DNA of 64,000 nucleotides from Mycobacterium sp. ITM-2016-00317 (GTDB lineage Bacteria > Actinomycetota > Actinomycetes > Mycobacteriales > Mycobacteriaceae): assembly GCF_002968295.1 (NCBI RefSeq), contig NZ_CP134399.1, positions 5,208,001 through 5,272,000 on the forward strand, in the 5' to 3' direction. Position 1 is the stretch's first letter. Each line of letters opens with the position of its first letter. The position numbers were made by a program, and so were the translations under genes. The notes under the pieces were generated by a model. The model worked only from the letters and a program-made list of their open reading frames with translations, ran no database searches and was not told where the DNA came from. Positions 6,029 through 23,652 of this stretch are shown in pieces.

Positions 6029-6066
6029 TTCCCTGCAGGTCCTTTCTTCGCAGTTTTCGCGGTCGC

Positions 6067-7356: not shown

Positions 7357-7373
7357 GGGTCCTTTCGATGGGG

Positions 7374-8170: not shown

Positions 8171-8186
8171 AGTGATCTATCTCACA
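8171..8186. promoter_or_regulatory. CRP/Cmr-type binding-site candidate upstream of ectA
   Basis: Read on the minus strand this is TGTGA-N6-TCACT, one base from the TGTGA-N6-TCACA consensus of CRP-family regulators (mycobacterial Crp, Rv3676). It lies about 270 bp upstream of the chosen ectA start. Its role in ectoine control is inference. Confidence 0.5.
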
Positions 8187-8246
8187 CCGGCCGCGCAGAT
8201 CCGGGCGCCCAGCCGCCGATCGGGATTCATGGCGGGGGCTGAACGA

Positions 8247-8300
8247 GAGAACCCCGGGTGAGGGCGCGGCCTGGTAGGCCTCACCTCATCCGGGGTTCTC
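8247..8300 (-). terminator. Hairpin downstream of fadA6 (second of two)
   Basis: An 11-base perfect outer stem (8247-8257 with 8290-8300) continues into an inner ggtgagg/cctcacc stem (8257-8263 with 8279-8285), with a small right-side bulge. It follows the hairpin at 8311-8336 in the direction of fadA6 transcription, so it may be a back-up terminator. A regulatory role for ectA is also possible. Confidence 0.5.
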
Positions 8301-8310
8301 TTGTCGGTTC

Positions 8311-8336
8311 ACGCCGGCAGGCTTCGCTGCCGGCGT
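8311..8336 (-). terminator. Terminator hairpin directly after fadA6
   Basis: Perfect 10-base arms (8311-8320 and 8327-8336) surround a 6-base loop and start 10 bp past the fadA6 stop. The stem is GC-rich and has no T-tract, as is common in mycobacteria. Confidence 0.6.
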
Positions 8337-8346
8337 CGCCGCCGTG

Positions 8347-9495
8347 CTAGAGCCGTTCGATGATCGTGACGTTGGCGGTGCCGCCGCCCTCACACATCGT
8401 CTGCAGGCCGTAGCGGCCGCCGGTGCGCTCCAGGGTGTTCAGCATCGTCGCGAAAAGCTTTGCGCCCGTTGCGCCCAGCGGATGTCCGAGCGCGATCGCC
8501 CCGCCGTTGGGATTGACCTTCTCCGGATCCGCCTTGGTCTCCTTGAGCCACGCCTGTACGACCGGCGCGAAGGCCTCGTTGATCTCGACGGTGTCGATGT
8601 CGTCGATCGTCAGACCGGCCTTGTCCAGCGCGTAGCGGGTGGCCGGGATCGGTCCGGTCAGCATGAACACCGGGTCGGCACCGCGCGCACTGATGTGGTG
8701 GATGCGGGCACGCGGTTTCAGATTGTGGGTCTTCACCGCGCTTTCCGACGCCAACAGCACCGCGCTGGCGCCGTCGGAGATCTGGCTGGCCATCGCAGCG
8801 GTCAACCGACCGCCGTCCACCAAGGTCTTCAGTCCGGCCATCTTCTCCAGTGAGGTGTCCCGCGGGCCCTCGTCGATCGCAAAGCCGTCCACCTCGATGA
8901 TCTCGTTCTCGAAGTGGCCCGCCCGGATCGCGGCCTGGGCGCGCTGATGGCTGGTCAGCGCGAACTGCTCCATGTCCTCGCGCGAGATGTCCCACTTCTC
9001 GGCGATGAGTTCGGCGCCGCGGAACTGCGAGATCTCCTGGTCGCCGTAGCGGTGCAGCCAGCTCTTGGATTCGTTTGTCGGGGAGGTGAATCCGAACTGC
9101 TCTGCGACGGTCATCGCGGAACTGATCGGGATCTGGCTCATGTTCTGCATACCGCCGGCGACGATCAGGTCGGCGGTACCGGACATGATCGCCTGGGCGC
9201 CGAACGAGATCGCCTGCTGGCTGGAACCGCACTGCCGGTCGACGGTCACGCCGGGCACCTCTTCGGGGTAACCGGCGGCCAGCCAGGACAGCCGCGCGAT
9301 GTTGCCTGCCTGCGGGCCGATCGCGTCGACGCAGCCGGCGATGACGTCGTCCACCGCGCCGGGGTCCACGTCGTTGCGCGCGAACAGGCCGCGCCAGCCC
9401 GCCGCCCCGAGATCGACCGGGTGCACACCGGCCAGCGACCCGTTGCGCTTGCCGATCGCGGTGCGTACAGCGTCGATGACATACGCCTCAGCCAT
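8347..9495 (-). CDS. fadA6: FadA6, steroid-degradation thiolase
   Basis: The 382-residue thiolase has the acylated cysteine in VDRQCGSS (Cys89), the GGAIALGHPLGATG histidine motif and the C-terminal MCEGGG cysteine. By family and position (directly after kstR2, as Rv3556c/Rv3557c) it is FadA6, which cleaves a beta-ketoacyl-CoA formed after the last steroid ring is opened. Its ATG overlaps the end of kstR2 by 8 bp, so the two are co-translated. Two hairpins follow it. KstR2 control is expected through the palindrome at 10118. Confidence 0.9.
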   Translation of the reverse strand: MAEAYVIDAVRTAIGKRNGSLAGVHPVDLGAAGWRGLFARNDVDPGAVDDVIAGCVDAIGPQAGNIARLSWLAAGYPEEVPGVTVDRQCGSSQQAISFGAQAIMSGTADLIVAGGMQNMSQIPISSAMTVAEQFGFTSPTNESKSWLHRYGDQEISQFRGAELIAEKWDISREDMEQFALTSHQRAQAAIRAGHFENEIIEVDGFAIDEGPRDTSLEKMAGLKTLVDGGRLTAAMASQISDGASAVLLASESAVKTHNLKPRARIHHISARGADPVFMLTGPIPATRYALDKAGLTIDDIDTVEINEAFAPVVQAWLKETKADPEKVNPNGGAIALGHPLGATGAKLFATMLNTLERTGGRYGLQTMCEGGGTANVTIIERL

Positions 9496-10102
9496 TGCTG
9501 CTCTCCTTGCTTGTTGACTCGGCGGTTATCCCGCCGAGGACGATCGAAAGGTACTGCTGTCCGACCTCTTCCGCGGTCAACGGGCCTCCGGGTTGATACC
9601 AGCGGACCGAAACCCAGGTGGTGTCGCGGATGAACCGGTACACCAGGTCGACGTCGACGTCGGGCCGGAAGTAGCCCTCGGCGATGCCCTGGGTGAGCAC
9701 GTCCACCCACATCTTGCGCTGTTCTCTGTTGCGCTCCTCGACGTAGCCGAACCGCTCCTGCGACGACAGTCGTTTGGCCTCGTCCTGGTAGATGACGACC
9801 TCGGCGTGGCGCGTCGCGATGGCCTCGAACGAAGTCATGAACAGACCCTTGAGGCGTTCCATCGGGTTGGCCTCGGTCTCGAGGATCCGGCGGTACCGGT
9901 CGAAGAGCCAGTCCAGGAAGCCGCGCAGCACCTCGTCGACCATCTCCTCTTTCGACGAGAAGTGGTGGTAGAGGCTTCCCGACAGGATTCCGGCCGAGTC
10001 GGCGATGTCGCGCACCGTGGTGGCGCGCAGCCCACGCTCGGCGAACATCGTCGCGGCGAGCGCCAAAAGCTCGTCGCGGCGGCTGGGCAGCGCCTTATCC
10101 AC
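9488..10102 (-). CDS. kstR2: KstR2, TetR-family repressor of steroid ring C/D genes
   Basis: The 204-residue TetR protein has its helix-turn-helix at about residues 25-50 (TTVRDIADSAGILSGSLYHHFSSKEEM) near the N-terminus. It is recognised as KstR2 (Rv3557c) from sequence character, from the coupled fadA6, and from a KstR2-consensus palindrome 15 bp upstream of its GTG start. KstR2 represses its own operon, ipdABC, and the fadE30/fadD3 promoters, and responds to a CoA thioester of the C/D-ring intermediate HIP. Autoregulation is expected. Confidence 0.92.
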   Translation of the reverse strand: MDKALPSRRDELLALAATMFAERGLRATTVRDIADSAGILSGSLYHHFSSKEEMVDEVLRGFLDWLFDRYRRILETEANPMERLKGLFMTSFEAIATRHAEVVIYQDEAKRLSSQERFGYVEERNREQRKMWVDVLTQGIAEGYFRPDVDVDLVYRFIRDTTWVSVRWYQPGGPLTAEEVGQQYLSIVLGGITAESTSKESSNG

Positions 10103-10117
10103 TCACCCAGAGTAGCA

Positions 10118-10131
10118 ACCAAGCGCTTGCT
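10118..10131. promoter_or_regulatory. KstR2 operator upstream of kstR2-fadA6
   Basis: The 14-mer ACCAAGCGCTTGCT fits the published KstR2 consensus AnCAAGnnCTTGnT at every fixed position. It overlaps the stop codon (10130-10132) of the BcsB-like gene lying upstream on the same strand. Confidence 0.9.
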
Positions 10132-12103
10132 AGGTAAGTCGAGTCCTGCTCCGACGGCGCCTGATCAACCACACGATTCCTGCGGTCAGTCCGATCGCGG
10201 CCGCCGCGGCAGCCGCGATGCTGATCGCGCCCGGTGGGAGCGACGACGCCTCGACCGCGGACGGTTCGGCGACATCGGCCCCGCCTGCCTGGTCGAAGAT
10301 CGTCAGATTGGTCGGCACCCCCTCCTCGCCGGCTGCCAACACATCACCGGTGAGCGCTGCCCACTCGCCGTCCAACCCGGCGAGGTAGCCGAACAGCGGA
10401 TCCACCAGCGACCAGGCACCCGTCGTGGTCACCAGCACCACGGAACGATTCCGGGAACGATCGGCGAAAGCCTGGACCGACCCGAGACCGGAACCGACAC
10501 TAGCGCGCAACTCGGATGGAAGGCCCACGTTCAAGGTGCCTCCGTCGCCGCTCACCGGCGGCCGCAGCGACGTCTCTTTCAGTGCCGACGAATTGGCGAC
10601 GATCAATGCCGCGGAATCAGCATCCGCGGCGGTCTTGAGATCGACTACTTCCGGAGTCAACTGCCTGCTACTGAGACGCGCGACAGCGGCGACCACGTCT
10701 GCGGCGTAGCCGAGCTGGTTCGGGCCGCTCCCGTCGAATGCGACCAGAAAACTCGGGCCGAACTCGGCGGGGATGGAGCTGAAGCCGCCGGGCGGAGGAC
10801 CACCGCGGTGGACGGTGAGGGACGAGCGAGGATCGATCTGGAATGTGATCGGGGCCGTCAGGGGCCCACACGCCTGCCGCGGGCTGTAGGTGAGCGCGAA
10901 GTCGAGGCTGACGAACTGGCCGATCGCGCGATCCCGCAGCACGAAGGTTGCGTCCAGCCGGCCTGCGTTGTCGAGCACACCGGTGTAGACGACGTTCCCG
11001 TCCGAGGAACGGATGACCACGGCCGCTGCATCCCCGTCAGGTACCGGTGTGTAATGAGCGAGCAGATGCACCTGCACGCTGTCGACACGACCGCTTCCTA
11101 GAGCCGAGCGTCCGACTCCCACCCGCAGACCGCTGGATCGGAGCACCTCGGTCCTGCCGTTCAGGTCCAACTGACCGAACGTCAGCACATCACCACTCGG
11201 GGCCTCACCGGATCCCGCCTGCTCGACGCGCGCGACGGGCGCCTGCGCCAGCGTCTGCAAGTCGTTGGCGAGCAACGACACCTGGGTGGAGAGGTCGCCG
11301 CCGGTGCCCGACACGCGGAGGTACGCAGCCGCGTTCCCGGCGTTCTCGACACGCAGACCGGCGGTGCCGCCCTTTTCGACGACGACCGTGCGGGTCAACG
11401 CACCAGCGCGCGGCGGTGTTGCGCCTCTCTGCTGATTGACCACGGTGACATCCAGCAGCTGAGGGTCGTACAGCCGCGTGAGCGTGGACACCAACCTCAG
11501 CACCGACTGCTGTTCAGCCGAGTCCGCGTCCTTCGGCGCGTAGATCGACACCCGCTCAAGCACCGGCGGGAAAAAGTTCGCGATCGTCGTCACGGGCGGT
11601 TCTGTTCCGGTGAACACCGTCGACAGGTCCGTGAGGGCCAACTGTTGGAGCGGGCCGCAGAACCGATCGACGCCGTCGAGGGCACGAACGGTCAACGACA
11701 ACTCGGCAGACGACGCTCGAACTCGGGCCGCCGAGATGTCGACATCCATCGGTATCGCAGCCTGCGCGGAGCCTGCAGGCGGCAGATCGACAGTGCCGAG
11801 CAGCTTTCCGTCGGCGTCGTCGATCTCCAGGTACCCGGCAGTGATGTTCATCGGGGCGTTGATGGTGCCGCGCAGTCGCGTCACACTGAGCCCGGTCGGC
11901 ACCGGCACAGTGAACGTTCTCGTACTGTCCGGGCCGAGCACCACCTCCCGCTCCATACCGAGTGCAGGCCAGCGCAACGTCACCGCCGACGCGACCTGGG
12001 AATCTCCGGCGTCGGGTTGGGCATGCACCGGAGCGGCGAACAAAGCAGGTAGAAACAGCAGCATCACGGAGGCCAGCACCCGCAACGCCCGGATGCGGCT
12101 CAC
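10130..12103 (-). CDS. BcsB-like secreted/membrane-anchored polysaccharide protein
   Basis: The 657-residue product starts with a signal peptide (RIRALRVLASVMLLFLPALF...AQ). A large extracytoplasmic part follows, and a single C-terminal membrane helix (about 20 residues, before a basic RRRRSRTR tail) anchors it. Two-part beta-rich domains and the CGPL...PITFQIDPRSSLTV segment resemble BcsB, the periplasmic partner of cellulose synthase; the resemblance is moderate. No BcsA-like synthase is in the window. The GTG at 12103 just before the signal peptide is preferred, since the frame is open for 71 more codons with no obvious start. It is divergent from the polysaccharide genes and ends 27 bp before kstR2. 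Confidence 0.6.
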   Translation of the reverse strand: MSRIRALRVLASVMLLFLPALFAAPVHAQPDAGDSQVASAVTLRWPALGMEREVVLGPDSTRTFTVPVPTGLSVTRLRGTINAPMNITAGYLEIDDADGKLLGTVDLPPAGSAQAAIPMDVDISAARVRASSAELSLTVRALDGVDRFCGPLQQLALTDLSTVFTGTEPPVTTIANFFPPVLERVSIYAPKDADSAEQQSVLRLVSTLTRLYDPQLLDVTVVNQQRGATPPRAGALTRTVVVEKGGTAGLRVENAGNAAAYLRVSGTGGDLSTQVSLLANDLQTLAQAPVARVEQAGSGEAPSGDVLTFGQLDLNGRTEVLRSSGLRVGVGRSALGSGRVDSVQVHLLAHYTPVPDGDAAAVVIRSSDGNVVYTGVLDNAGRLDATFVLRDRAIGQFVSLDFALTYSPRQACGPLTAPITFQIDPRSSLTVHRGGPPPGGFSSIPAEFGPSFLVAFDGSGPNQLGYAADVVAAVARLSSRQLTPEVVDLKTAADADSAALIVANSSALKETSLRPPVSGDGGTLNVGLPSELRASVGSGLGSVQAFADRSRNRSVVLVTTTGAWSLVDPLFGYLAGLDGEWAALTGDVLAAGEEGVPTNLTIFDQAGGADVAEPSAVEASSLPPGAISIAAAAAAAIGLTAGIVWLIRRRRSRTRLT

Positions 12104-12622
12104 CGCCGCTGCCCGGTACCGCTGAGATCCGGTCGCGGTAACCCCGCGGTAGTCCGGATTTGACGACAAGACTGAACTGACCGGGTCACCTGTTCCACTT
12201 TCGGGGTGCACGAGCTTCGTAATCCCAACAGGGGTCGGACTATACCGCCGGACACCGCAAGCGACCGCATTATCGGTAACGAAAGAATTGCGCCGTAAAT
12301 CACGTTTTTTCCACACTAACTACGCTTTGCTGGTCACACGCTAGTCCGTCACGAAGCGATCGGGGCCGTGGCCAGGCATTCTTAATACTCCCGCTAACGC
12401 CATTAGGCACTCAACCCACCGCTCGGCTGTGCACTCCCAGGCGATACCGATCGTTTTGAACGTCCTTGATTACGGCGGTGTTCCGACCGCGGCTCTAAAC
12501 ATCTCCACCCGTGACGACGTCGTCGCCTTCCTTGGCGGCGAGCTATTACCTGGGATAGCGTAGTGCGACTGTGCGCGCGAGCGGCAGGCATGAGAGAGAG
12601 CCTCAGCGGTGAAGGGTCGCAG
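12104..12622. other. Divergent promoter region of the polysaccharide island
   Basis: About 520 bp lie between the BcsB-like gene and the Wzz-kinase gene. Base composition is visibly more A+T-rich than the surrounding steroid genes (for example around 12290-12330 and 12380-12400). It should hold divergent promoters, but I cannot fix -35/-10 boxes or an operator with confidence. No RNA gene is recognisable. Confidence 0.5.
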
Positions 12623-14026
12623 TTGACTGTTCAGGATTTCGCGCGAATCTTACGCACCCGTTGGCGGATCATCTGCGCAACAACAGGTATCGCGATAATC
12701 GGCGCCTTCGCTTACTCGCTCTTCATGGCCCCCTCATACCAGGCATCGACCCGCTTGTTCGTCGCGACCGCGGCGGATGGAACCAATTCCGAGATTTATG
12801 ACGGTAGCCTCTTTGCTGAGCGTAGAGTGCTGTCTTATATCGAACTGTTGGCGGGCGATATTCTGGCGCAGCGCACGATAGACAAACTCGGCCTCGACAT
12901 GAGTGTCTCGGAACTGCAGGACCAGATCGAAGCAAGTGCGCCGACGGAGACCGTCGTCATCGACGTCGCGGTGTCCGACCGGTCGGCGGCGCGAGCACGC
13001 GACATCGCGAATGCACTGTCTGACGAGTTCGTCATCATGGCGGCAGAACTGGAAACGCCGACGCTGGGCGCGCAACCGAATGCGCGCGTAATCGTGCAGC
13101 AGCGCGCGGACATCCCCGACAGTTCGACGGCACCGAATACCGCTCGGACGATGGCCGTCACCGCGCTACTCGGCGCGATAATCGGCATCATCATCGCGCT
13201 TGTCCGGGGACGAAGTGACCACTCGGTGAGAAGCCCCAGCACCCTCGAGGAAGCAGCCGGCGTCGGGCTCCTTGTCGAGATCCCGTTCGAGGCGAAGTTA
13301 CGGGAGAATCCGCTCATTTCATTTCAATCCGACTCTTCCCCGTCCGCCGAGGCTTTCCGCGAGCTGCGTGTGAATCTCAAGTTCCTCGAGGTCGCCGAAG
13401 GGTCGCGAGTGCTCACGGTGACCAGCGCGATGCCCGAAGAAGGGCGGACCTCTACGGCGATCAACCTCGCCCTCTCACTGGCCGAATCCGGCCACAACGT
13501 GATCGTCGTAGACGGTGACATGCGCCGCCCGAGGGTCGCGCGCTATCTGGACCTGTCCGGGAAGAACGGCCTGAGCAATGTGCTCCGTGGCGAGGTTGCC
13601 GTGCGTGATGCGCTACAACAAACCTCGTCGACTCGGCTGACGGCGCTCACATCGGGCCCGATCCCCCCCAGCCCCACCGAACTCCTCGAATCCCCGGCTA
13701 CTACAGATGTCCTGAACGAATTGAGCGCACAGTTCGACTACGTCGTCGTCGATACGCCGTCGCTTCTGAAACCGGACGGCGCAATCCTCGCGGCAGCGTC
13801 TCAAGGCGTGCTGATGCTCGCCCGGTTCGGCACGACCCGACGCGGAGATCTTGTTCGAGGCTGCAGCTCGCTCAACCGGGCAGGCGCACCACTCGTCGGC
13901 ACCGTTCTGACGATGACACCGGCGAAGCGGTCCAGGGGCAGGGCCTATTACAGCAGCTCTGAGGATTCGCAGCCCCTCCCGCAGGTCCCGACGGAACACG
14001 GGCCACGCCGGTCGCGCGGAAACTGA
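12623..14026 (+). CDS. Wzz/BY-kinase: polysaccharide chain-length and tyrosine autokinase fusion
   Basis: The 467-residue protein has a Wzz-type N-terminal half with two membrane helices (about residues 15-35 and 175-195) flanking an extracytoplasmic loop. A cytoplasmic P-loop domain of the CpsD/BY-kinase type follows. Walker A reads SAMPEEGRTSTA, with arginine where the catalytic lysine is expected; Walker A' VDGDMRRP and Walker B YVVVDTPS look normal. The C-terminus has only two adjacent tyrosines (AYYSSSE) instead of a long cluster. TTG at 12623 is preferred because GAAGGG lies 6 bases upstream and Wzz proteins begin with (M)TVQDF; ATG 12590 is the alternative. Its likely job is control of polymer length and export with the Wzy-like neighbour. 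Confidence 0.82.
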   Translation: MTVQDFARILRTRWRIICATTGIAIIGAFAYSLFMAPSYQASTRLFVATAADGTNSEIYDGSLFAERRVLSYIELLAGDILAQRTIDKLGLDMSVSELQDQIEASAPTETVVIDVAVSDRSAARARDIANALSDEFVIMAAELETPTLGAQPNARVIVQQRADIPDSSTAPNTARTMAVTALLGAIIGIIIALVRGRSDHSVRSPSTLEEAAGVGLLVEIPFEAKLRENPLISFQSDSSPSAEAFRELRVNLKFLEVAEGSRVLTVTSAMPEEGRTSTAINLALSLAESGHNVIVVDGDMRRPRVARYLDLSGKNGLSNVLRGEVAVRDALQQTSSTRLTALTSGPIPPSPTELLESPATTDVLNELSAQFDYVVVDTPSLLKPDGAILAAASQGVLMLARFGTTRRGDLVRGCSSLNRAGAPLVGTVLTMTPAKRSRGRAYYSSSEDSQPLPQVPTEHGPRRSRGN

Positions 14027-14041
14027 CCGGACAGCACATCG

Positions 14042-15493
14042 ATGGGCGGGGACGAAGGCACGCGGGGTTCTGTATCTTCCTATGTGGCCGCACCGCCCGT
14101 GTATCTGAGGGAGCGCACCCGCTTCCTCGATTCTCCCCCAACGGATTCGAGAATCCGCCGACGGGCATTCGTCCTGCTGCTGGTGACCGCGCTCGGCCTC
14201 GTCGTGATCCCTGAGGCCATCAATTACCTGATCGTCAAGCACACACCCGATCTGGCCATCAGCGAAGCCTTGGTTTCGGCTGAGACTCCCGTCGCGGGCC
14301 TGGCGCGATGGGTTGGGTCGGCCGCCCTGCTCGCCGTGAGCGCTTGGGGCGTGCTCATGCGCGGGCACCCGAACCGCGACATCACCTGGCTGCTCGTGTT
14401 CTTGCTTGCCTTGAACCTGCCCTACCTCGCTGGGCCGGACCGTCCGGGCCCGGCGGACCTGGTCAAGATCCTCCTCGCGAACATCGTTCTGCTGGCGATA
14501 TGGAACACCGGAGCGCGGGTGGCGGACCTGAAGTGGATTCCGGTCCTGATGTCATGCGTCGGCGCCTATTCGATAGTCGGCGGGCTGATCATTCCCGAAT
14601 ACATGATGTACAACATCGTCTCCAGAAAGTCGCTTGTCGCAGGCTGGGAGCTAGCCGGACCGTTCGGACAGAGCAACGCACTCGGCATGTACTGCGCTAT
14701 TTCGTTCTCGTTGATACCGCTCATCAAAAAGATCCAGTGGCGAGTGCTCTGCGCGTCGCTTCTATTGGCGACGATAATCCTGTCTGCGACCAGAACGGCG
14801 GTGGTCGCAGCCGCGGTAGTCATTCTGTGGTGGATATTCTGTCGAATCCGGCCGCTGATTTCGGTACGTCTGGCAGGTACTGCACTCGCGACTTCCGCCG
14901 TTGCAGCCGCCTTCGTCATTCCCTGGCTGGATTGGGGCTCGGACGCGTTCACCGAGCGTGCATTCATCTGGTCTGAGGCACTCGACCTTTGGCAGCAAGC
15001 CCCGATCGTCGGCTCCGGTTTCAATTGGTTCCTGGTTCATGGTCAGGCGCAGGCGCAGATCGTGGTCTGGGCCGTCGCCGGTACGGGTCACAACATCGTC
15101 GTCGACACGCTGGTGAAGTACGGAGTGGTGGGCCTGGCCACACTCATACCCGTTTGGCTAGGCGCGATTTGGGCGACTCGGGCCATGCGTGCCCCGAACG
15201 AACAAATCGCATGCTTCGGCTATCTCAGCGCCTTCTTCGTGATGGCCATCACCGAAGCAGTCTGGGATCTGTGGCCCAACGTGCAGCAGTTCCCCACCAG
15301 CGGCCTGATTTTCGCGACGATTCTGATGGCCCGAAATGGCGACCCCGCCAGACAGGAGTCTCCCGATGTTGAGAAACCGAAATCAACGATCGAGCACCCG
15401 CGTGCTGTATTCCGGCTTCCACTACCTGCACATCAATCCCGACTCGGGGTACGACAAGGTCGTTCCGGATACCGGCAACTACGTGAGCGGTGA
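14042..15493 (+). CDS. Wzy-like O-antigen polymerase/ligase
   Basis: The 483-residue protein is mostly hydrophobic, with about ten to twelve predicted membrane helices and a large extracytoplasmic loop. The pattern W...APIVGSGFNWF, followed by TGHNIVVDTLVKYGVVG, is typical of the Wzy_C O-antigen ligase/polymerase family. It probably joins repeat units or attaches the finished glycan outside the membrane. The last 40 residues are basic and unlike the family; they are read from DNA that also encodes the start of the next gene in another frame (128-bp overlap). A lost stop codon is a likely cause. Confidence 0.78.
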   Translation: MGGDEGTRGSVSSYVAAPPVYLRERTRFLDSPPTDSRIRRRAFVLLLVTALGLVVIPEAINYLIVKHTPDLAISEALVSAETPVAGLARWVGSAALLAVSAWGVLMRGHPNRDITWLLVFLLALNLPYLAGPDRPGPADLVKILLANIVLLAIWNTGARVADLKWIPVLMSCVGAYSIVGGLIIPEYMMYNIVSRKSLVAGWELAGPFGQSNALGMYCAISFSLIPLIKKIQWRVLCASLLLATIILSATRTAVVAAAVVILWWIFCRIRPLISVRLAGTALATSAVAAAFVIPWLDWGSDAFTERAFIWSEALDLWQQAPIVGSGFNWFLVHGQAQAQIVVWAVAGTGHNIVVDTLVKYGVVGLATLIPVWLGAIWATRAMRAPNEQIACFGYLSAFFVMAITEAVWDLWPNVQQFPTSGLIFATILMARNGDPARQESPDVEKPKSTIEHPRAVFRLPLPAHQSRLGVRQGRSGYRQLRER

Positions 15494-16418
15494 GCGACTC
15501 CCCTTCGCCAACCGCCTCGAGTCCACCAGACCGCGACACCTCAACTTCCTGTTGCTGGATCTGCTCACCCTTGTCCGCGGGCTGCGCCACGACACGGTGC
15601 ACTACTTCCACCCGGAAGCCACCGCCTACCTTTCACCATGGCTTCTCCGCTTGTTCGGCAAGCGCATCGTCTACACGGTGCATCTTGATGATTCTCAGTG
15701 GCTGGGCTCGGTACGCAGCACGCACCACCGCATCAAGCAGATATCGCTGCGCGCCGCCCATGTGATCGTTGTTCTCAGCAGCCAACAGCGCGACGTCTTC
15801 AGTCAGGCATTTCCGGACAAGAACGTGAGCTTCGTACCCCACGGATTTACGTTCGACGCCATTGCGGAGCCTCCGGTCGAGGTGTTCGAACGACGCACTT
15901 GCGAGCCGCGGCGGCTCGTCATGGTCGGGGCCAACTACCGCGATATGGACATGCTGGAACAGGTTGTGGCCGAACGTGGCTCGCGTGAGGTCCAGATCGA
16001 ACTCGTGGGCATGGACGAGGCGACTAAGCTCCGGTTTGCACAACAGGACGGCGTGGTGTGCCACCCACGCCTGGACGCCGCGAGCTATCACAAGCTGTTG
16101 TGGGAATCGTTCGCGCTGCTGCTGCCGCTCACGTTCGCGACGGCCAACAACGCTCTGCTCGAAGCGTACAACTGTTATCTGCCTGCACTGTTGAGCCGCA
16201 TCGACGGCGTCACGGACTACGTCGCCGACGGTGACCGCTCGTTGTTCTCCTCACCACAGGAATTCTGGTCGAAGTATGACGCTCTGACGACACTCAGCCC
16301 GCAGGAACTGCGCGATTACTGCACTACGCTGCACACGGTAGCGAGCGATCGGTATTCCTGGCCGAAAGTCAGGCTCGAACTTTCGAAACTCTACGCACAT
16401 GGCGACTCTACGCCTTAG
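15366..16418 (+). CDS. Glycosyltransferase (GT-B-like, group 1 type)
   Basis: The 350-residue protein begins with RVLYSGFHYLHINPDSGYDK and has an Rossmann-like two-domain layout. The C-terminal half holds a donor-binding-like LLWESFALLLPLTFATANNALLEAY segment, resembling the E-x7-E region of GT4 enzymes. It should transfer one sugar during repeat-unit assembly at the inner face of the membrane; donor and acceptor are unknown. ATG 15366 has AGGAG 7 bases upstream. It is the only glycosyltransferase of the island, so other transferases must be encoded elsewhere. Confidence 0.72.
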   Translation: MLRNRNQRSSTRVLYSGFHYLHINPDSGYDKVVPDTGNYVSGERLPFANRLESTRPRHLNFLLLDLLTLVRGLRHDTVHYFHPEATAYLSPWLLRLFGKRIVYTVHLDDSQWLGSVRSTHHRIKQISLRAAHVIVVLSSQQRDVFSQAFPDKNVSFVPHGFTFDAIAEPPVEVFERRTCEPRRLVMVGANYRDMDMLEQVVAERGSREVQIELVGMDEATKLRFAQQDGVVCHPRLDAASYHKLLWESFALLLPLTFATANNALLEAYNCYLPALLSRIDGVTDYVADGDRSLFSSPQEFWSKYDALTTLSPQELRDYCTTLHTVASDRYSWPKVRLELSKLYAHGDSTP

Positions 16419-16465
16419 CCTTAGCTAACGGGGTAATTGCTACTTAGTTCGGAGGGGGATCGAAC

Positions 16466-17044
16466 GTGAGGTCTGTAGAGGAAATCTTTTCAGATACGAT
16501 TTCAGTCAAATCAAGGATCCTCAACGACCCCGTTCTTCTTGAAACCGCTCGCGCAGTCGCGAATCACCTGATCTCGGGATACCGGGAAGGTGCCCGGGTC
16601 TTCATGTGCGGCAACGGCGGGAGTGCCGCAGATGCCCAGCATTTCGCCGCAGAGCTGACGGGTCACTTCATCTTCGACCGGCCACCACTCGGAGCCGAAG
16701 CGCTCCACGGTAATTCGTCCCACATGACGGCTGTGGCCAACGACTACGACTACGAGACAGTCTTCGCGCGTGCACTGGAAGGATCGGCGCGGCTCGGGGA
16801 CAACCTCGTCGCGATCAGCACGTCGGGAAATTCGGCCAACGTGCTGCGCGCCGCGTCGACCGCGAAGAGACTGGGCGTGAACGTTATTGCGATGACCGGA
16901 GAATCAGGCGGTCAGCTGGCAAACTTCGCTGATTTCCTGATCAGGGTGCCGTCCACTGATACCGGGCGCATCCAGGAATCCCACATAGTTTTCATTCACG
17001 CAATTTCCGAACATGTCGAGCACGCGTTGTTCGCACCGCGTTGA
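16466..17044 (+). CDS. gmhA: GmhA, sedoheptulose-7-phosphate isomerase
   Basis: The 192-residue SIS-domain protein carries the GmhA motif [19 protein letters not shown], the phosphate-binding STSGNSANV and the C-terminal [18 protein letters not shown] with metal-ligand histidines. It converts sedoheptulose 7-phosphate to D-glycero-D-manno-heptose 7-phosphate. The GTG start is supported by GGAGGGGG 8 bases upstream. It is followed by gmhB and hddA, the same order as M. tuberculosis Rv0113-Rv0115. Confidence 0.92.
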
Positions 17045-17090
17045 CGACGTTATGCCCGAATGTGCTGCTTGCCGGTTGGTGGTCGAACGA

Positions 17091-17648
17091 ATGGATCGGC
17101 AATGGTGTCTTTTCGTGGATCGGGACGGAGTGATCAACCGACGGATCGTCGACGGCTACGTCCGCGAGTGGGGTGACTTCGAGTGGCTGCCGGGCGCGAA
17201 ACGAGCCCTGGGAATCCTGCGCGCGTGGGCTCCTCAACTCGTGGTCGTGACGAACCAGCAAGGCGTGGGCAAGGGACTGATGGCGTCAGCAGATGTCGCG
17301 ATGATCCACGATCAGATGCGAAGTGAGCTTGCGGAGTCGGGTGTCTCGATAGACGGCTTTCAGGTGTGCCCGCACCTGGCCGCATCCGAATGCCGTTGTC
17401 GCAAGCCCAGGCCAGGGCTGATCCTGGACTGGCTGCACGCGCATTCCGGTTCCCAACCCGCGCTGAGCGTCATGTGCGGTGACAGCCGCAGCGACCTCGA
17501 ACTGGCTGACAACGTTGCTGCCGTTACGGGAGGATGCGCGGGAATTCAGATCGGTGAACCCACCGGCGTATCCGCCTACGCGTCATATGACACCCTGTGG
17601 GATTTCGCGGCCGCGGTCGAACATGCGATACAGGAGCAGGTCTCGTGA
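17091..17648 (+). CDS. gmhB: GmhB, D-glycero-D-manno-heptose-1,7-bisphosphate 7-phosphatase
   Basis: The 185-residue HAD phosphatase has motif [12 protein letters not shown], motif [13 protein letters not shown], a GmhB-type zinc loop [11 protein letters not shown] (shortened compared with E. coli) and KPRPG plus [10 protein letters not shown] for motifs III and IV. It removes the 7-phosphate from heptose 1,7-bisphosphate. ATG 17091 gives the usual length; ATG 17052 in the same frame is an alternative. The stop overlaps the hddA GTG. Confidence 0.88.
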
Positions 17649-18709
17649 CGGTCATCCGTGGACGAGCGCCGTTGCGACTCGGCCTCGGCGGCGGCGGGAC
17701 CGACGTCGACCCGTACTCCACCGAGTTCGGCGGACGAATTCTGAATGCCACGATCGATCGGTACGCCTATGCGTTCGCCGAGCGCTGTGACGGTGACACC
17801 ATTGCCTTTCGTTCCCCCGACCGCGACAGAGCCGGCACAGGAACCTTCGCGGACCTGGAAAGCCTCAAAGACGATTTTCCCCTGCATGTGGCGGTCTACC
17901 GCCGGGTGATCGGCGAGCTCAACCGCGGCGAACCGATCCCGCTCACACTTGCGACTCAGGTCGACGCTCCACCCGGTTCCGGCCTGGGGTCGTCCTCCGC
18001 CCTTGTCGTGGCGATGCTGATCACGACGTGCGAACTCATCGGTACGACACTGAGCCCGTACGAATTGGCACGTCTGGCGTGGGAAGTCGAACGGGTGGAT
18101 CTGGGGATGGCCGGCGGCTGGCAGGATCACTATGCCGCGGCCTTCGGCGGATTCAACTTCATGGAGAACCGGCCGAACGAAGAGGTCGTGGTCAACCCAC
18201 TGCGCATACGCCGCGAGGTGATCGCCGAGTTGGAGGCGTCCCTTCTGCTCTATTTCGGAGGCGTGTCCCGGCTGTCCTCGGAGGTCATAGCCGAACAGCA
18301 GCGCAACGTGGTCGAACGCGAAGTCGATGCGTTGGCCGCGACGCACGCGATTCGCGACGAGGCGCTGGAGATGAAGGACCTCCTCGTCGTCGGCGACATT
18401 CCCGGCTTCGCGGATTCGTTGTCGCGGGGATGGGAAGCCAAGAAACGGCTGGCCTCCAGGATCACGACTCCCGCTATCGAGGCGGCCTACGACACCGCGG
18501 TGCTCCACGGCATGCTCGCCGGCAAGGTCTCTGGGGCCGGCGGCGGCGGATTCCTCATGATGATCGTCGACCCGAGGCGGCGTATCGAAGTGACACGCAG
18601 TCTCGAAAGGGAGTGCGGGGGCACCGTCTCACCGTGTCTGTTCACACATGCCGGTGCGGAGACATGGCGGACCCCATCGGGGCGGAAGCCTCTGACCCCC
18701 AGCCGGTGA
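17645..18709 (+). CDS. hddA: HddA-like heptose-7-phosphate kinase (GHMP family)
   Basis: The 354-residue GHMP kinase begins [16 protein letters not shown], has the ATP-binding [16 protein letters not shown] and the C-terminal [14 protein letters not shown] motif. With GmhA and GmhB it would make D-glycero-alpha-D-manno-heptose 1-phosphate. The GTG start overlaps the gmhB stop (GTGA). The last enzyme, the HddC guanylyltransferase, is not in the window. It is convergent with the flippase gene, 14 bp apart. Confidence 0.88.
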
Positions 18710-18723
18710 GGATGACGACGGGA

Positions 18724-20196
18724 TCAGAGTCTGCGCTTCCGCACGTTGGCCAGAATGGCTGTGAACTCTCGAGTTTCGCGTTTGAACGCCGGCACGAATG
18801 CAAGCAGCACCACCACCAGCAGCGATGAGATGGACGCCCCGGCCAGTGTCCAGGCCGCCTGCCAACCGCTTCGGGTCAGGGTTTCGCTGACGATGAGTCC
18901 GACTGCCACCATGGGCGTCAGGAAGGCGAGCCGCAGCAAGGAGGGCCGCAGGAGTTCCATCGCCGGGAATCCGATTCTGGGCAGTCCTATCACCGTCGAC
19001 GCGAACCAATTCAGCAGCAGACTGGCGGCATACAGCGCGGCGATCCACTCGGCACCCCTGGTGTTGAACACGAAGTACGCCGCGGTGATCGGTATCCACA
19101 CTGTCGCGTCGAGCAGCCACACCAAGCCCAACCGACGCTTGCGTGTGTAGAGCCAGTAGTTCACATATCCGAAGATCTGGAAGATGCCACCGATTGCGAT
19201 GATCTGTGCGAGACGGCCTGATGCACGCCAATCCGAGCCGAACAAGACTTCGACGAGATCCGGGCCACCCACGATGATGAGCACGATGAACGGCAACAGC
19301 GCGTACGCCATCGCGAGCTGAACCCGTTTCGCTGCCGCGACCAGGTTCGGGCCCTCTTCGACGCGGGCCAAGATGGGCACGACCACGCGGGTGAGCGGCC
19401 CCGCCAACTGCACAAGTGGGAACGCCACAAGTTGAAAGGCCCGGTTGTACAACCCGATCGTCGCCGCGCCGAGGGCCTGTCCAACCGCCGCCGGCGCTGC
19501 GTACACTGCCGCATAGTTCGTCAGATCGATTCCCAGGGACGTGGCGCCGAAAGACAAGTGCTCCGTCAAGCCTCGCAGACTCGGTCGCGAACGTGGCACG
19601 TAACGCGACAGGACCATCAGCGTCGTGACCAGGACGACCGCGGCTACGCCTTGCTGAACTACCACCGCCCAGTACCCGGCGCCTCGCAGAGCCACGATGC
19701 AGGCAGCGACAAGGGCCACCCCCTGCGCGATCGGATCGACGCACGCCAGCGATGCGAACTTGTGCTTACGCGCGAGCTCCGCCCGGAACTGCGACGCCAG
19801 CCCGGAAATGCACACGAATGCCGCCAGCCATCGGGTGACCTCCTCCAGCAGCGGCTCTCCGTAGAAAGCGGCGATCAACGGTGCCGCCAGCCAGACGCAC
19901 CCCGCCGTCACGAGCGCCAAAACCGCGTTGATGTAGAACAGTGCGTCCCGGATCGCAGGGGGGAGACTCGCCTCCCGCATGATCGCCATCGAGAGCCCGA
20001 AATCGCTCAGTACCGACGTCACCCCGATTATCGAAGTGACCATCGCCACCAGCCCGAAGTCGACGGGCGTGAGCAGGCGAGCGAGCAGGATCAGGCCCAT
20101 CAACTGGATCAGCGTGCGAAGCATCTGGCCGATGATGACGGCGAATCCCCCGCGGACAGCGGTCCCCTGAAGAGAACCGCTATCAGAGGAGGTCAC
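18724..20196 (-). CDS. Wzx-like polysaccharide flippase (MOP superfamily)
   Basis: The 490-residue membrane protein has about 12-14 helices and begins with the MOP pattern RGGFAVIIGQMLRTLIQLMG...LLARLLTPVDFGLVAM. It resembles the lipopolysaccharide/oligosaccharide flippases that move lipid-linked repeat units across the membrane, so it supplies the Wzx step beside Wzz and Wzy. The start is GTG at 20196. It points back toward hddA and is separately transcribed. Confidence 0.85.
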   Translation of the reverse strand: MTSSDSGSLQGTAVRGGFAVIIGQMLRTLIQLMGLILLARLLTPVDFGLVAMVTSIIGVTSVLSDFGLSMAIMREASLPPAIRDALFYINAVLALVTAGCVWLAAPLIAAFYGEPLLEEVTRWLAAFVCISGLASQFRAELARKHKFASLACVDPIAQGVALVAACIVALRGAGYWAVVVQQGVAAVVLVTTLMVLSRYVPRSRPSLRGLTEHLSFGATSLGIDLTNYAAVYAAPAAVGQALGAATIGLYNRAFQLVAFPLVQLAGPLTRVVVPILARVEEGPNLVAAAKRVQLAMAYALLPFIVLIIVGGPDLVEVLFGSDWRASGRLAQIIAIGGIFQIFGYVNYWLYTRKRRLGLVWLLDATVWIPITAAYFVFNTRGAEWIAALYAASLLLNWFASTVIGLPRIGFPAMELLRPSLLRLAFLTPMVAVGLIVSETLTRSGWQAAWTLAGASISSLLVVVLLAFVPAFKRETREFTAILANVRKRRL

Positions 20197-20374
20197 GCGT
20201 GAGCCGTAGGACGCACGTCGGCAGGCTTCGAAGCAAACACTGGGGAGTCCACCGCAAGAGCGACAGGGCGGAGGGACGAAGTGGCAGTGCGTGTCTCTCC
20301 GGTCACCGCCCGAGTCTAGCGCGACCAGCTAACTGCAATCCGGCAGCTTGAGCCCAGTTCAGGCACCCATGCCT
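20197..20374. other. Gap between flippase and hydrolase genes
   Basis: These 178 bp upstream of the flippase gene should carry its promoter, unless it is read through from the hydrolase gene on the same strand. I see no clear promoter boxes or hairpin. Confidence 0.4.
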
Positions 20375-21415
20375 CTAGGAAGCGGCTCGGATCAGTGCTG
20401 TGGCGGCCGGCTTGAGTGTGAGGTCTTCACGAAGGACGCCGAAACTGTCCTCGTCCTGCGCGGAGTTCCCACCGTCGACGAGCTCGTAGTAGATCAGTGG
20501 ACCCGCCCAGTCCCAGCGTGCGGTTTGATCACGCGCCTTCACAACGGATCGTGCCTGGTCTTTCTCGGACACCGCGTTCGGTCCTCGTGTCGGCGCCCCG
20601 AACTCGGTGATCCAGATCTTCTTTCGGCCGTCCCCGCGGCGCTTCATCACAGCGTGCAGTTCCGGGAGGTCAGTGAATTCACCGATCATCCGCTCGGTCT
20701 TGGCCGTGGGCATGGCGGGGAAACTGTAGGGGTGGGCGGCGACGGCGTCGGCGAGTTGCGCCGCCCCGCTGTCGTAGAGCTGCTCGAGGTACTCCGTCGG
20801 CGATATCTCGCCCGGCGACGTCGCGTATTTCGGGGAGAGTCCACCGATGAGCAGCGTCGCCTCTGGATCCACTTCGCGTATCGCCTCGGCTGCTACTCGG
20901 AACAACGCGCTGTATTCGCGCACATCCGGTCTTGGCGGCCAAAAGCGCCTGATATTTGGTTCATTCCAGATCTCCCAGCTGCCAACCCCTCTCGGGCCAT
21001 ATCTCTCGGCGGCGATGCGGGCGAACCTCGCGAAGGCCGACAGCTCGACAGGCCGGTGATAGGGAGTGATTCCCGAGTGCCCCGGCGCAGATGAACGCGC
21101 CCATGGCGGGGTGAATGCGAGAACGGCCAGCACGTTCATTCCGCGGGTTGCGGCTTCACTGACGATCTTGTCGGGGTACGACCAGTCGAACTGCCCGCGC
21201 TCCCGCTCGATCCACGCCCAGCCGATGTCCACTCGTACCCAACGGACATTCATCTCCGCCATCAGTTCGAACTGCCGCTCGATGCTAGCGGCGTCGGCGC
21301 CCCGGGAATGCACGGTCATACCGATCTCGGTTCGACTCGGAGGGGACTGGCACGACACCGCGACCAACGCGATCGGAACCAGCATCAGGCACGCGAGAAA
21401 CCTGTGCCTGTTCAA
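20375..21415 (-). CDS. Lipoprotein glycoside hydrolase (clan GH-A, PslG-like)
   Basis: The 346-residue protein begins with a lipoprotein signal peptide (NRHRFLACLMLVPIALVAVSC, lipobox Cys22), so it should sit on the outer face of the plasma membrane. The mature part is a (beta/alpha)8 hydrolase with the clan GH-A acid/base motif GSWEIWNEPN and a nucleophile motif ITEFGAP. The layout resembles GH5/GH39 enzymes such as PslG, which trims exopolysaccharide in Pseudomonas. It probably cuts or edits the island's glycan. The start is TTG. It is divergent from the unknown membrane protein. Confidence 0.75.
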   Translation of the reverse strand: MNRHRFLACLMLVPIALVAVSCQSPPSRTEIGMTVHSRGADAASIERQFELMAEMNVRWVRVDIGWAWIERERGQFDWSYPDKIVSEAATRGMNVLAVLAFTPPWARSSAPGHSGITPYHRPVELSAFARFARIAAERYGPRGVGSWEIWNEPNIRRFWPPRPDVREYSALFRVAAEAIREVDPEATLLIGGLSPKYATSPGEISPTEYLEQLYDSGAAQLADAVAAHPYSFPAMPTAKTERMIGEFTDLPELHAVMKRRGDGRKKIWITEFGAPTRGPNAVSEKDQARSVVKARDQTARWDWAGPLIYYELVDGGNSAQDEDSFGVLREDLTLKPAATALIRAAS

Positions 21416-21602
21416 GTCCGCAGACTCATCATCGCTCGTCCCTCAGACCCTCTCGTTCGTCGGGTTCTGCCGCTATTGCATCACGTGCCCCATGACACCA
21501 AAGCAGGTTGCGCTGATCATCTCCGGCACAGTCCCGGATTTGCGGTTGCGTACGCCCTGGCCAACTGCGCGGCGTAGCGTTGTTCGGCAGGGGGGCTCAG
21601 GT

Positions 21603-22844
21603 ATGGCAAAGAATCACGGAAAATCGACCGGCCGGCCCATGCACGTACTCAGGGATACGCGAACATGGCTACTGGCATCGATGTATGTGATCATCTTCGC
21701 CACAAGTGCGGATTTCTCATCGCCGCCTTCCGGCGATGCGCTCGAGTACCGGCAAATATCTTCCGCCGCACCGGAATTACCGACGACTTCGATCGGTTCG
21801 GCGTATGCCGGTAGATTTGCCGTCCACTACGCCGTCGGCATACTCGCGAAACTACCCGGTGTCTCGCTCGATACGGCCTACGCCCTGGCCTGGGCCATCA
21901 CCATGGCTGCACTATTCGCCGTGGTCCTCGCCCTCTTCCGACACCTACCCGTGCCTGAGTTCGCGCTGTGCTCTGCTCTTTTCGTCCTGAATCCCTATAC
22001 CTTGCGGCCCTTCGTCTCGCAGACGGACTCGTTGCAGGATCTTGTCTTCGTGGCGGGTTTAGGTATCTGCCTGCTCGGCCTGAGGCGGCAGGCGCCGGTC
22101 AAAGTGCTCGGCGGGCTGCTTATCGCCGCACTCGGACGCCAGACGGCCATCGGGGTCACACCCGTTGCTGCACTGTGGATCCTGGTGGATCCGGCATGGC
22201 GGAAGCCGGAACGTGCGCATGCTCGGCCGTGGACGACGGCGGCGGCAACCCTTGCGCTGCCTTTCGTCATCTATGGCGGCATCAAGGTGTGGACCGCCCG
22301 CTTCTCTGTGGATTACGAACCCTCACTGCTACGTGATTCGGTACTGACCCGCATCGGTGACCTGCCCGCAGCAGCACCGGAACTGGCCGCACACCTGGCC
22401 CGCACCGCGATACCGCTCACCCTGCCGGTAGCCGTATTGGTCCCGCTGGTCGTGATTGCCGGTTGGCGCAATCTGTCTGTGCCGTGCTGGATGAGCCTCT
22501 TGATGGCCGGCGCACTGGCGGCACAGCCGGCGATGATCGATCCGGCGTGGGTGGGCTTCCAATCGAACGAGCAGCGCCTTGGAGCGCTGGCCGTTCTACC
22601 GCTCGTCTATGCGATCTCCGAGGTCCTCGGCAGCCTGAGCGACCGTCCGCACCGGAAGCTCGCTGTCGGCTTCACCGTCGCGGTGATCGCCATCGCGTCG
22701 TTGCACCATGAGTTCACGTCGTTCGGGCCTGCGTCTCTGGCACAATTCCTGTCAGTTCAGCTGGTGGCAGCTGTGGCCGTCGCCGGGCTGATCACCTTTG
22801 ACCGGCGCGCGGTGCGTAAACCCACGGCGGCACAGGAAGCGTGA
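21603..22844 (+). CDS. Unknown polytopic membrane protein of the polysaccharide island
   Basis: The 413-residue product is largely hydrophobic, with about nine to eleven predicted helices. I do not recognise a family. Its general look (FVLNPYTLRPFVSQTDSLQDL after the fourth helix, an early loop with GDALEYRQ) recalls GT-C-type membrane glycosyltransferases or mannosyltransferase-like proteins. A catalytic acidic pair after helix 1 (SGDALE) would fit that, but this is a guess. The ATG at 21603 follows GGGGGG closely. It ends 16 bp before the convergent ipdF gene and forms the right edge of the island. Confidence 0.6.
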   Translation: MAKNHGKSTGRPMHVLRDTRTWLLASMYVIIFATSADFSSPPSGDALEYRQISSAAPELPTTSIGSAYAGRFAVHYAVGILAKLPGVSLDTAYALAWAITMAALFAVVLALFRHLPVPEFALCSALFVLNPYTLRPFVSQTDSLQDLVFVAGLGICLLGLRRQAPVKVLGGLLIAALGRQTAIGVTPVAALWILVDPAWRKPERAHARPWTTAAATLALPFVIYGGIKVWTARFSVDYEPSLLRDSVLTRIGDLPAAAPELAAHLARTAIPLTLPVAVLVPLVVIAGWRNLSVPCWMSLLMAGALAAQPAMIDPAWVGFQSNEQRLGALAVLPLVYAISEVLGSLSDRPHRKLAVGFTVAVIAIASLHHEFTSFGPASLAQFLSVQLVAAVAVAGLITFDRRAVRKPTAAQEA

Positions 22845-22860
22845 TATCTGCGTGCCGGAC

Positions 22861-23652
22861 TTACGCCCGTTGGCTCGACACCGAGATCACCTCGCCGGTC
22901 AGGTAACTGGAGTAGTCGCTGGCCAGGAACGCGATGGTGGCCGCGACCTCCCACGGCTCCGCAGCGCGGCCGAACGCCTCGCCTTCGGCCAACCGGTCGA
23001 GCAGTTCGGAGCTGCTGGTCTTCTCCAGGAACTTGTGCCGGGCGATGCTCGGTGAGACCGCGTTGATCCGCACCCCGTACTCGACGGCCTCGACCGCGCT
23101 GCACCGGGTCAGCGCCATCACGCCGGCCTTGGCCGCGGCGTAGTGCGACTGCGAGTGCTGTGCGCGCCAGCCCAGCACGCTGGCGTTGTTCACGATGACA
23201 CCGCCGTGCGGCACGTCGCGGAAGTACCGCAACGCGGCCCGGGTCGCCCGCATCACCGACGTCAGCGTCACGTTGAGGACGCGATCCCACTCGTCGTCGG
23301 TCATGTCGATGACCGGCGTCTGCCCGCCCAGGCCGGCGTTGTTCACCAGAACGTCGAGGCGACCGGCCTTTTCGACCGTACGGGCGATCAGCGCGTCGAC
23401 GGCTTCGGTGGAGGTGACGTCACACACCACCGAGTCGACCTTGCCGAGGCCGAGCGCAGCGAGTTCGTCGCGGGTCTCGCCGAGCCGGCGTTCGTGATAG
23501 TCGGAGACCACCACGTCGGCACCCTCGAGCAGCGCGCGCCGTGCGGTCGTCGACCCGATGCCGGTGCCGGCCGCGGCGGTCACCAGCACGACCTTGCCCT
23601 TGAGCAGGTCATGGCCCGCGATCTCAGTGGGCGCGATGGACAGATCGGTCAT
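22861..23652 (-). CDS. ipdF: IpdF, short-chain dehydrogenase of steroid ring C/D catabolism
   Basis: The 263-residue SDR has a nucleotide motif TAAAGTGIGSTTA, the NNAG motif, a catalytic Ser (NNASVLGW) and YAAAKAG for Tyr/Lys. It matches Rv3559c (IpdF), which oxidises the 5-hydroxy form of HIP-CoA. The ATG overlaps the fadE30 stop (ATGA), so it is translationally coupled. The next gene on the other side belongs to the polysaccharide island. Confidence 0.88.
   Translation of the reverse strand: MTDLSIAPTEIAGHDLLKGKVVLVTAAAGTGIGSTTARRALLEGADVVVSDYHERRLGETRDELAALGLGKVDSVVCDVTSTEAVDALIARTVEKAGRLDVLVNNAGLGGQTPVIDMTDDEWDRVLNVTLTSVMRATRAALRYFRDVPHGGVIVNNASVLGWRAQHSQSHYAAAKAGVMALTRCSAVEAVEYGVRINAVSPSIARHKFLEKTSSSELLDRLAEGEAFGRAAEPWEVAATIAFLASDYSSYLTGEVISVSSQRA

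What the first reader, a model, noticed from the sequence alone, without database searches (positions are those of the whole stretch)
10130..22844. Candidate undescribed polysaccharide island with heptose genes
One block holds a BcsB-like exported protein, Wzz-kinase, Wzy, Wzx, one glycosyltransferase, gmhA-gmhB-hddA, a lipoprotein glycoside hydrolase and an unknown membrane protein. Together they look like a Wzx/Wzy pathway for a heptose-containing glycan, rare in mycobacteria, which are known for arabinogalactan, lipoarabinomannan and glucan. A+T content is visibly higher than in the flanks.
Basis: partly seen in the sequence, partly recalled or inferred. Interest (0 to 1): 0.78.

Follow-up and report, generated by a model that had tools for sequence, protein, structure and literature searches.

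The report
Mycobacterial exopolysaccharide locus with heptose cargo
This stretch looks like a sugar-coat factory of an environmental mycobacterium, built on the capsule-type Wzx/Wzy plan and carrying swappable sugar genes, here genes for a seven-carbon sugar; whether the coat really contains that sugar still has to be tested.

Summary
The block (10130-22844) looks like a Wzx/Wzy-type exopolysaccharide locus of a Mycolicibacterium; its nearest named relative found is M. vaccae. Close wzy homologues occur in 17 of 198 genus genomes, own included. The exported protein has a BcsB fold, with no BcsA beside it; the 'unknown membrane protein' has a GT-C glycosyltransferase fold.

The heptose genes are not core. 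M. vaccae has the same locus at 89-91% DNA identity without them. In nine genomes with this locus type the slot between GT4 and wzx is empty in six, and holds gmhA-gmhB-hddA (window), gmhA-hddA (one) or a FkbM-type methyltransferase (one): a cargo slot, as in serotype loci.

HddC, the last GDP-heptose enzyme, is missing from the window; the genome's best match is 37% identical. No heptosyltransferase tracks with the trio. Heptose in the polymer is plausible, not shown.

The GmhA belongs to equivalog PRK13938. A 2024 review calls rv0112-rv0115 exclusive to tubercle bacilli (passage); no direct sequence comparison was made.

The parts
10130..12316 (-). BcsB-fold exported protein with a C-terminal helix (the database protein P0130 is 657 aa, about 10130-12103); no bcsA beside it
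12563..14026 (+). Wzz chain-length protein fused to a tyrosine autokinase
   Evidence: PF02706 and AAA_31; TIGR01007 135 bits, cut-off 108
14042..15493 (+). Wzy-type polymerase
   Evidence: PF04932 52.5 bits, cut-off 31.7; 23 of 198 genus genomes match, 17 at 49% identity or more, own included
15336..16418 (+). GT4-type glycosyltransferase (start uncertain)
   Evidence: PF13439 and PF13692; 97% identical in M. vaccae
16466..17044 (+). gmhA, sedoheptulose-7-phosphate isomerase; first gene of the cargo
   Evidence: NF010547/PRK13938 367.7 bits, cut-off 320; more general GmhA models below their cut-offs; six residues tested in M. tuberculosis GmhA kept at a constant offset of 3
17013..17648 (+). 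gmhB, heptose bisphosphate 7-phosphatase
   Evidence: TIGR01656 145 bits, cut-off 84; three GmhB-specific models below cut-off, best NF006506 119 of 178; DxDG and CxHx7CxC motifs present
17597..18709 (+). hddA, heptose 7-phosphate kinase (GHMP); start may lie later
   Evidence: PF00288 and PF08544; best NCBIfam match NF049969, 296 bits, below cut-off 600; GHMP motifs present
16398..18721 (.). stretch with no match in the collinear M. vaccae locus: the cargo
   Evidence: blastn pieces end at 16397 and resume at 18722; junctions
18724..20196 (-). Wzx-type flippase
   Evidence: PF13440 200 bits; NCBIfam flippase models below their cut-offs
20375..21415 (-). lipoprotein glycoside hydrolase, GH39/GH5-like
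   Evidence: PF01229 2.1e-8, PF00150 5.2e-7; signal peptide ending in AVSC, read from the sequence
21600..22844 (+). GT-C-fold membrane glycosyltransferase (start uncertain; ORF from 21066)
21362..22859 (.). second stretch with no match in the M. vaccae locus (holds the GT-C gene)

Best explanation
The block is the polymerisation and export half of a Wzx/Wzy-dependent exopolysaccharide locus found sporadically in Mycolicibacterium. Proposed mechanism: a PF02397 enzyme (candidate C1:1498171-1499709) loads the first sugar on a polyprenyl phosphate. Cytoplasmic glycosyltransferases (GT4 in the block; GTa and GTb, with an epimerase, at C1:5200.5-5203.9 kb) finish the repeat unit. Wzx flips it, Wzy polymerises it, and the Wzz-kinase sets chain length. 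The BcsB-fold protein holds or guides the chain outside the membrane without a BcsA partner, and the lipoprotein hydrolase trims it. gmhA-gmhB-hddA is a cargo cassette in a variable slot between the GT4 gene and wzx; [quoted passage not shown] Shown by sequence or predicted fold: the gene families, the recurring gene order, the slot with different contents, the BcsB and GT-C folds. Inferred: the polymer itself, its export route, the initiating enzyme, and heptose in it.
For: Gene families. bcsB, wzzK and wzy stand together in 20 of 20 type-1 and type-2 genomes compared (own included), GH in 17 of 20. BcsB fold. The four-gene module GAF / PF02397 / UppS-like / amine-oxidase-like lies beside bcsB in 4 of 11 type-2 loci and is present at C1:1497.3-1501.9 kb here. 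Heptose genes lie in the same slot in a second genome, and a FkbM-type methyltransferase in a third. The trio is on the strand of wzzK-wzy-GT4, 47 bp after the GT4 gene, with overlapping frames if the longest ORFs are taken. Pairwise dN/dS of gmhA and hddA is 0.04-0.12 in the six of eight pairs where it could be computed.
Against: No hddC in the window (best tblastn E 0.19, one query); the best in the genome is 37% identical. Seven of nine type-1 genomes lack heptose genes in the locus, and the GT4 protein of M. vaccae is 97% identical. The GT-C gene does not go with the trio: its three other genomes are not among the 11 with HddA at E 1e-90, and the second slot-bearing genome has no GT-C match at E 1e-6. 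HddA and three GmhB-specific models score below the curated NCBIfam cut-offs. Pfam Wzy_C also covers ligases. The PF02397 module is beside none of the eight other type-1 loci in the stretches held. No expression or chemical data exist here. A second heptose cluster in the genome shows that heptose may be used elsewhere.
Confidence: 0.6

Rival explanations
1. The Wzx/Wzy locus is real, but the heptose trio feeds a different product (a glycolipid, a glycoprotein or the second heptose cluster); its place in the slot is incidental.
For: Seven of nine type-1 genomes lack the trio there. Of 10 close trio loci, 8 show no type-1 locus beside them, one of these on a 5.3-kb contig too short to judge. 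The same genome has a GT9 gene and an HldE-like fusion in another cluster. hddC is missing.
Against: Same slot in two genomes, same strand and tight spacing to wzzK-wzy-GT4.
Confidence: 0.27
2. The trio is a decaying passenger: an ancestral four-gene cassette has lost hddC here, and gmhB as well in the second slot-bearing genome.
For: gmhA-gmhB-hddA-hddC in 4 of 9 assessable loci; no hddC in the window or the second slot-bearing locus, which also lacks gmhB.
Against: Motifs present; low pairwise dN/dS, though pairwise values do not isolate this lineage; three further trio loci outside the slot also lack an adjacent hddC.
Confidence: 0.12
3. The Wzy_C protein is a ligase, and the locus decorates a lipid or protein with a short glycan rather than making a polymer.
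For: PF04932 is named O-antigen ligase and, as I recall, covers ligases and polymerases; a hydrolase and a GT-C protein would fit a decoration system.
Against: A Wzz-tyrosine kinase chain-length protein beside it in 20 of 20 type-1 and type-2 genomes.
Confidence: 0.15
4. It is a cellulose synthase locus, as some database names of the BcsB-like homologues suggest.
For: BcsB fold; some homologues are named cellulose synthase subunit or BcsB.
Against: No BcsA beside it. The genome's best of three CelA matches (58.9 bits, cut-off 699) lies at C1:633.9 kb beside a different BcsB homologue.
Confidence: 0.03

Closest known systems
Wzx/Wzy-dependent capsule and exopolysaccharide loci (general knowledge)
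   Same: Wzx, Wzy, Wzz with tyrosine autokinase, glycosyltransferases, variable sugar genes inside a conserved frame
   Different: BcsB-fold protein in the core; initiating enzyme and some glycosyltransferases elsewhere in this genome; mycobacterial cell envelope
Bacterial cellulose synthase BcsA-BcsB
   Same: BcsB fold
   Different: No BcsA beside it; Wzy polymerase instead; 12-14% identity; no Pfam match. That some mycobacteria carry putative BcsA/BcsB genes is in print (PMC6364259, passages)
[quoted passage not shown]
   Same: First three enzymes, motifs present
   Different: HddC not found in the window; nearest homologue in the genome 37% identical
M. tuberculosis gca-gmhA-gmhB-hddA operon, rv0112-rv0115 (PMC10906988, PMC12810186, PMC3087520, passages)
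   Same: Same three-gene order; GmhA in the PRK13938 equivalog (196 positions; the M. tuberculosis enzyme has 196 residues); six tested residues at a constant offset; no hddC named in the operon in these passages
   Different: gca absent; here inside a Wzx/Wzy locus; sequences not compared directly

Membership tests
Wzx/Wzy-dependent polysaccharide pathway | Wzx-family flippase | tested here: met
   PF13440, 200 bits
Wzx/Wzy-dependent polysaccharide pathway | Wzy polymerase (not ligase) | tested here: inconclusive
   PF04932 above cut-off, but the model also covers ligases
Wzx/Wzy-dependent polysaccharide pathway | Wzz chain-length protein with tyrosine kinase | tested here: met
   PF02706; TIGR01007 above cut-off
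Wzx/Wzy-dependent polysaccharide pathway | Polyprenyl-phosphate initiating transferase | tested here: inconclusive
   Four PF02397 genes in the genome, none in the block; homologues of one beside 4 of 11 type-2 and 0 of 8 other type-1 loci
Wzx/Wzy-dependent polysaccharide pathway | Polymer made and dependent on wzy | not testable with these tools
   Needs the organism
GDP-heptose pathway | GmhA | tested here: met
   NF010547 367.7 bits, cut-off 320
GDP-heptose pathway | HddA | tested here: inconclusive
   Best match is the HddA model but 296 bits against cut-off 600
GDP-heptose pathway | GmhB | tested here: inconclusive
   HAD phosphatase domain above cut-off, three GmhB models below; motifs present
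GDP-heptose pathway | HddC in the cluster | tested here: not met
   tblastn of one HddC homologue against the window, best E 0.19; 37% homologue elsewhere
BcsA-BcsB cellulose synthase | BcsB fold | tested here: met
BcsA-BcsB cellulose synthase | BcsA beside it | tested here: not met
   No GT2 family among the block's proteins; best CelA match in the genome lies beside another BcsB homologue
GT-C glycosyltransferases (21600-22844) | GT-C fold | tested here: met
GT-C glycosyltransferases (21600-22844) | Catalytic acidic residue in the first outer loop | tested here: inconclusive
   D46 invariant in 10 sequences, after the first long helix (20-35) at the start of helix 46-56 of the model; topology not tested
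rv0112-rv0115-type heptose locus | GmhA of the PRK13938 equivalog | tested here: met
   367.7 bits, cut-off 320; two other mycobacterial GmhA proteins 167 and 133. That the model stands for Rv0113 is recalled
rv0112-rv0115-type heptose locus | gca (GDP-mannose dehydratase) beside gmhA | tested here: not met
   No dehydratase family in the block's proteins
rv0112-rv0115-type heptose locus | Close sequence kinship of all three genes | not tested
   The genomes searched are unnamed and no tubercle genome was identified among them; no such sequence was compared

The most novel reading that the evidence does not exclude
Some mycobacteria carry a hybrid export system: a Wzx/Wzy polymer handed to a BcsB-type guide that has been uncoupled from BcsA, perhaps to lead the chain towards the outer mycomembrane. 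A serotype-like cargo slot swaps sugar genes, and its heptose cassette comes from the same pool of environmental mycobacterial cassettes from which the heptose genes of the tubercle bacilli were drawn.
Probability: 0.27. Interest if true: 0.8.

Novelty: new variant of a known kind. Interest (0 to 1): 0.58.

Why it matters
How mycobacteria make and export polysaccharides other than arabinogalactan, lipoarabinomannan and glucan is poorly known. PMC6364259 (passages) says the M. tuberculosis genes for cellulose are yet to be identified; PMC12167362 (passages) calls the cellulose machinery of mycobacteria unknown. A recurring locus with flippase, polymerase, chain-length kinase and a BcsB-fold protein gives a concrete genetic handle in environmental species. 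The cargo slot would make surface variation traceable across species. If the trio is kin to rv0113-rv0115, the published view that those genes are exclusive to tubercle bacilli (PMC10906988, passage) would need revision and an environmental reservoir would be identified.

Tried and rejected
Rejected: heptose genes as a fixed part of the locus. Rejected: the GT-C gene as the dedicated heptosyltransferase of the trio, since the two do not co-occur at the thresholds used. Rejected: a cellulose locus. Led nowhere: plasmid search for the trio gave 9 records, none covering 80%; phage records gave 11 distant HddA relatives, all under 60% identity; Rfam found nothing in 9000-24500; no tRNA in the window; no repeat pair of 18 bases or more marks the cargo's edges. 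The GmhA tree (7 of 8 inner branches open) and the HddA tree (4 of 7 open) do not resolve where the cassette came from, so gain here versus loss in M. vaccae is undecided. A third, partial BcsB-profile match at C1:1173507-1173887 lies among what look like ribosomal protein genes and was not followed. Paper searches: 65 papers, 25 listed; 7; 0; 16, 12 listed; 4; 3; 245, 15 listed. No title or abstract start in these listings describes a Wzx/Wzy polysaccharide locus in mycobacteria. Papers not listed were not seen, and the library holds open-licence papers only.
Full report
What is there. The window is C1:5208001-5272000 of a one-contig 6.06-Mb genome. By the BcsB-like protein the nearest of five named loci found is M. 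vaccae NBRC 14118, 92% identical; flanking DNA matches it at 93.5-96.0%. The block lies between the TetR-family gene at 9488-10102 and the SDR gene at 22861; I recall these as the kstR2 region of M. tuberculosis, where PPE64 takes this place. GC is 0.625 over 12317-22844 against 0.674 and 0.694 in the flanks.

The locus in relatives. Wzy matches 23 of 198 genus genomes: 17 (own included) at 49% identity or more, one at 40-43%, five weakly. I fetched 20-kb stretches round the 17 (own excepted) and one of G066 and compared them with the five named loci. That is nine genomes. Type 2 has another wzx and a GT2 in their place: 11 genomes (L040-L050). bcsB, wzzK and wzy stand together in all 20. GH was found in 17 of 20: 6 of 9 type-1 (not in M. 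parafortuitum, G099, G142) and 11 of 11 type-2. The other two named loci (L030, L031) hold bcsB with a distant wzzK (27-29%), and L031 a weak wzy match; G066 has diverged wzy copies without a wzzK or bcsB match in the stretch fetched. At least two of GTb, epimerase, GTa and GT2 lie in the stretch in 14 of the 19 other genomes (11 of 11 type-2, 3 of 8 type-1). In the window's genome GTb, epimerase and GTa lie at C1:5200.5-5203.9 kb, 14 kb before bcsB, with a membrane protein without Pfam match beside them that I labelled GTC without a fold test; its homologues sit inside the locus in L029 and L035. Type-1 loci sit at the TetR/SDR junction in six genomes and beside genes I recognised as pta or ackA (not tested by family search) in three (G014, G180, G323).

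The slot. Between GT4 and wzx six of nine type-1 genomes have only a short gap; the window has gmhA-gmhB-hddA; G323 has gmhA and hddA without gmhB; G180 has a FkbM-type methyltransferase gene (PF05050). The window and M. vaccae are sisters with 100/100 support in the GT4 and Wzx trees, so gain here or loss there is recent (inference). Against M. vaccae the window has three stretches without a match: 4724-8348 (ectoine genes), 16398-18721 (trio) and 21362-22859 (GT-C).

The heptose trio. Close HddA (76-82% identity) was found in 6 other genomes of 396 and 7 others of 383 at least 99% complete. The samples overlap; together they give 8 other genomes and, with the window and two copies in G323, 10 loci. 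Four and five further genomes had HddA at 48-49%. Among public proteins the same GmhA type is frequent: 704 proteins at E 1e-50 among capped candidates, the 120 listed all at 79% or more. hddC lies directly behind in 4 of 9 assessable loci (L052, L078, L079, L081); the window, L080, L082, L113 and L114 show none; L083 ends with its contig. G323 has two copies: gmhA-hddA in the slot and a four-gene cassette elsewhere. The window has no hddC (best E 0.19, one query); the genome's best is 37% identical at C1:1519426, perhaps a mannose-1-phosphate guanylyltransferase (inference). Six residues mutated in the M. tuberculosis GmhA study (N53, S121, T122, S123, S126, Q173) fall on the same residue three positions earlier in the window protein; the paper names the glutamate once as E65 and once as E66, and E66 fits. 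Pairwise dN/dS was 0.04-0.12 for gmhA and hddA and 0.11-0.13 for gmhB, against 0.12-0.17 for GT4 and wzx; three of 11 trio pairs could not be computed, and all the trio's dS values are above 1, so these ratios are rough.

Initiation and carrier. Four PF02397 genes exist in the genome, none in the block. One lies in a module GAF / PF02397 / UppS-like / amine-oxidase-like at C1:1497.3-1501.9 kb; homologues of all four stand beside bcsB in L041, L043, L048 and L049, i.e. 4 of 11 type-2 loci and 0 of 8 other type-1 loci, in the stretches held. This makes it a candidate, no more. A homologue of another PF02397 gene (C1:1496.6 kb) stands near two of the four-gene heptose cassettes (L078, L079).

Other heptose use. 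A second cluster at C1:2921.1-2928.8 kb has GmhB and GmhA relatives (33% and 45%), a PfkB plus cytidylyltransferase fusion as in HldE, a GT9 (heptosyltransferase family) gene and a carbamoyltransferase gene. So heptose chemistry in this genome need not depend on the window's trio.

Relation to print (passages read, no whole papers). [quoted passage not shown] PMC3087520 lists Rv0113-Rv0115 as horizontally acquired, GC 61.3. PMC12810186 describes a gca-gmhA-gmhB-hddA operon. PMC6364259 says some mycobacteria carry putative BcsA/BcsB genes while M. tuberculosis seems to have neither; PMC12167362 says much the same of M. tuberculosis. The window's GmhA and three relatives pass the PRK13938 cut-off (320 bits) with 353-383 bits, while two other mycobacterial GmhA proteins score 167 and 133. 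The model has 196 positions, the length given for the M. tuberculosis enzyme. This suggests, without proving, that the trio is of the tubercle type; no tubercle sequence was compared.

Judgement. An ordinary reading (a Wzx/Wzy exopolysaccharide locus) explains most of it. Unusual are the BcsB fold without BcsA, the cargo slot, and the possible link of the cargo to a locus thought private to the tubercle bacilli. Heptose in the product remains a hypothesis.

Noticed in passing
4724-8348: Ectoine genes (ectA, ectB and an ectoine hydroxylase by NCBIfam) form a third stretch absent from the collinear M. vaccae region.
   Followed up: partly
L087, about C1:5166.1-5177.4 kb: A separate cluster with a Wzy_C protein, a PF02397 initiating enzyme, four glycosyltransferase genes and an epimerase, about 31-42 kb before the window.
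   Followed up: partly
L110 (C1:624000-643999): A second BcsB-like gene beside a GT2 gene with a sub-threshold CelA match, next to genes that look like pta and ackA.
   Followed up: partly
L053, C1:2921.1-2928.8 kb: Second heptose cluster with HldE-like fusion, GT9 and carbamoyltransferase genes.
   Followed up: partly
L079 and L080 (G323): One genome with two close heptose cassettes: a four-gene one, and gmhA-hddA in the slot without gmhB.
   Followed up: partly
L051 and G066:C37:119904-135713: Three diverged wzy copies (40-43%) within 16 kb; near two of them a FkbM homologue and a distant PF02397 homologue.
   Followed up: no
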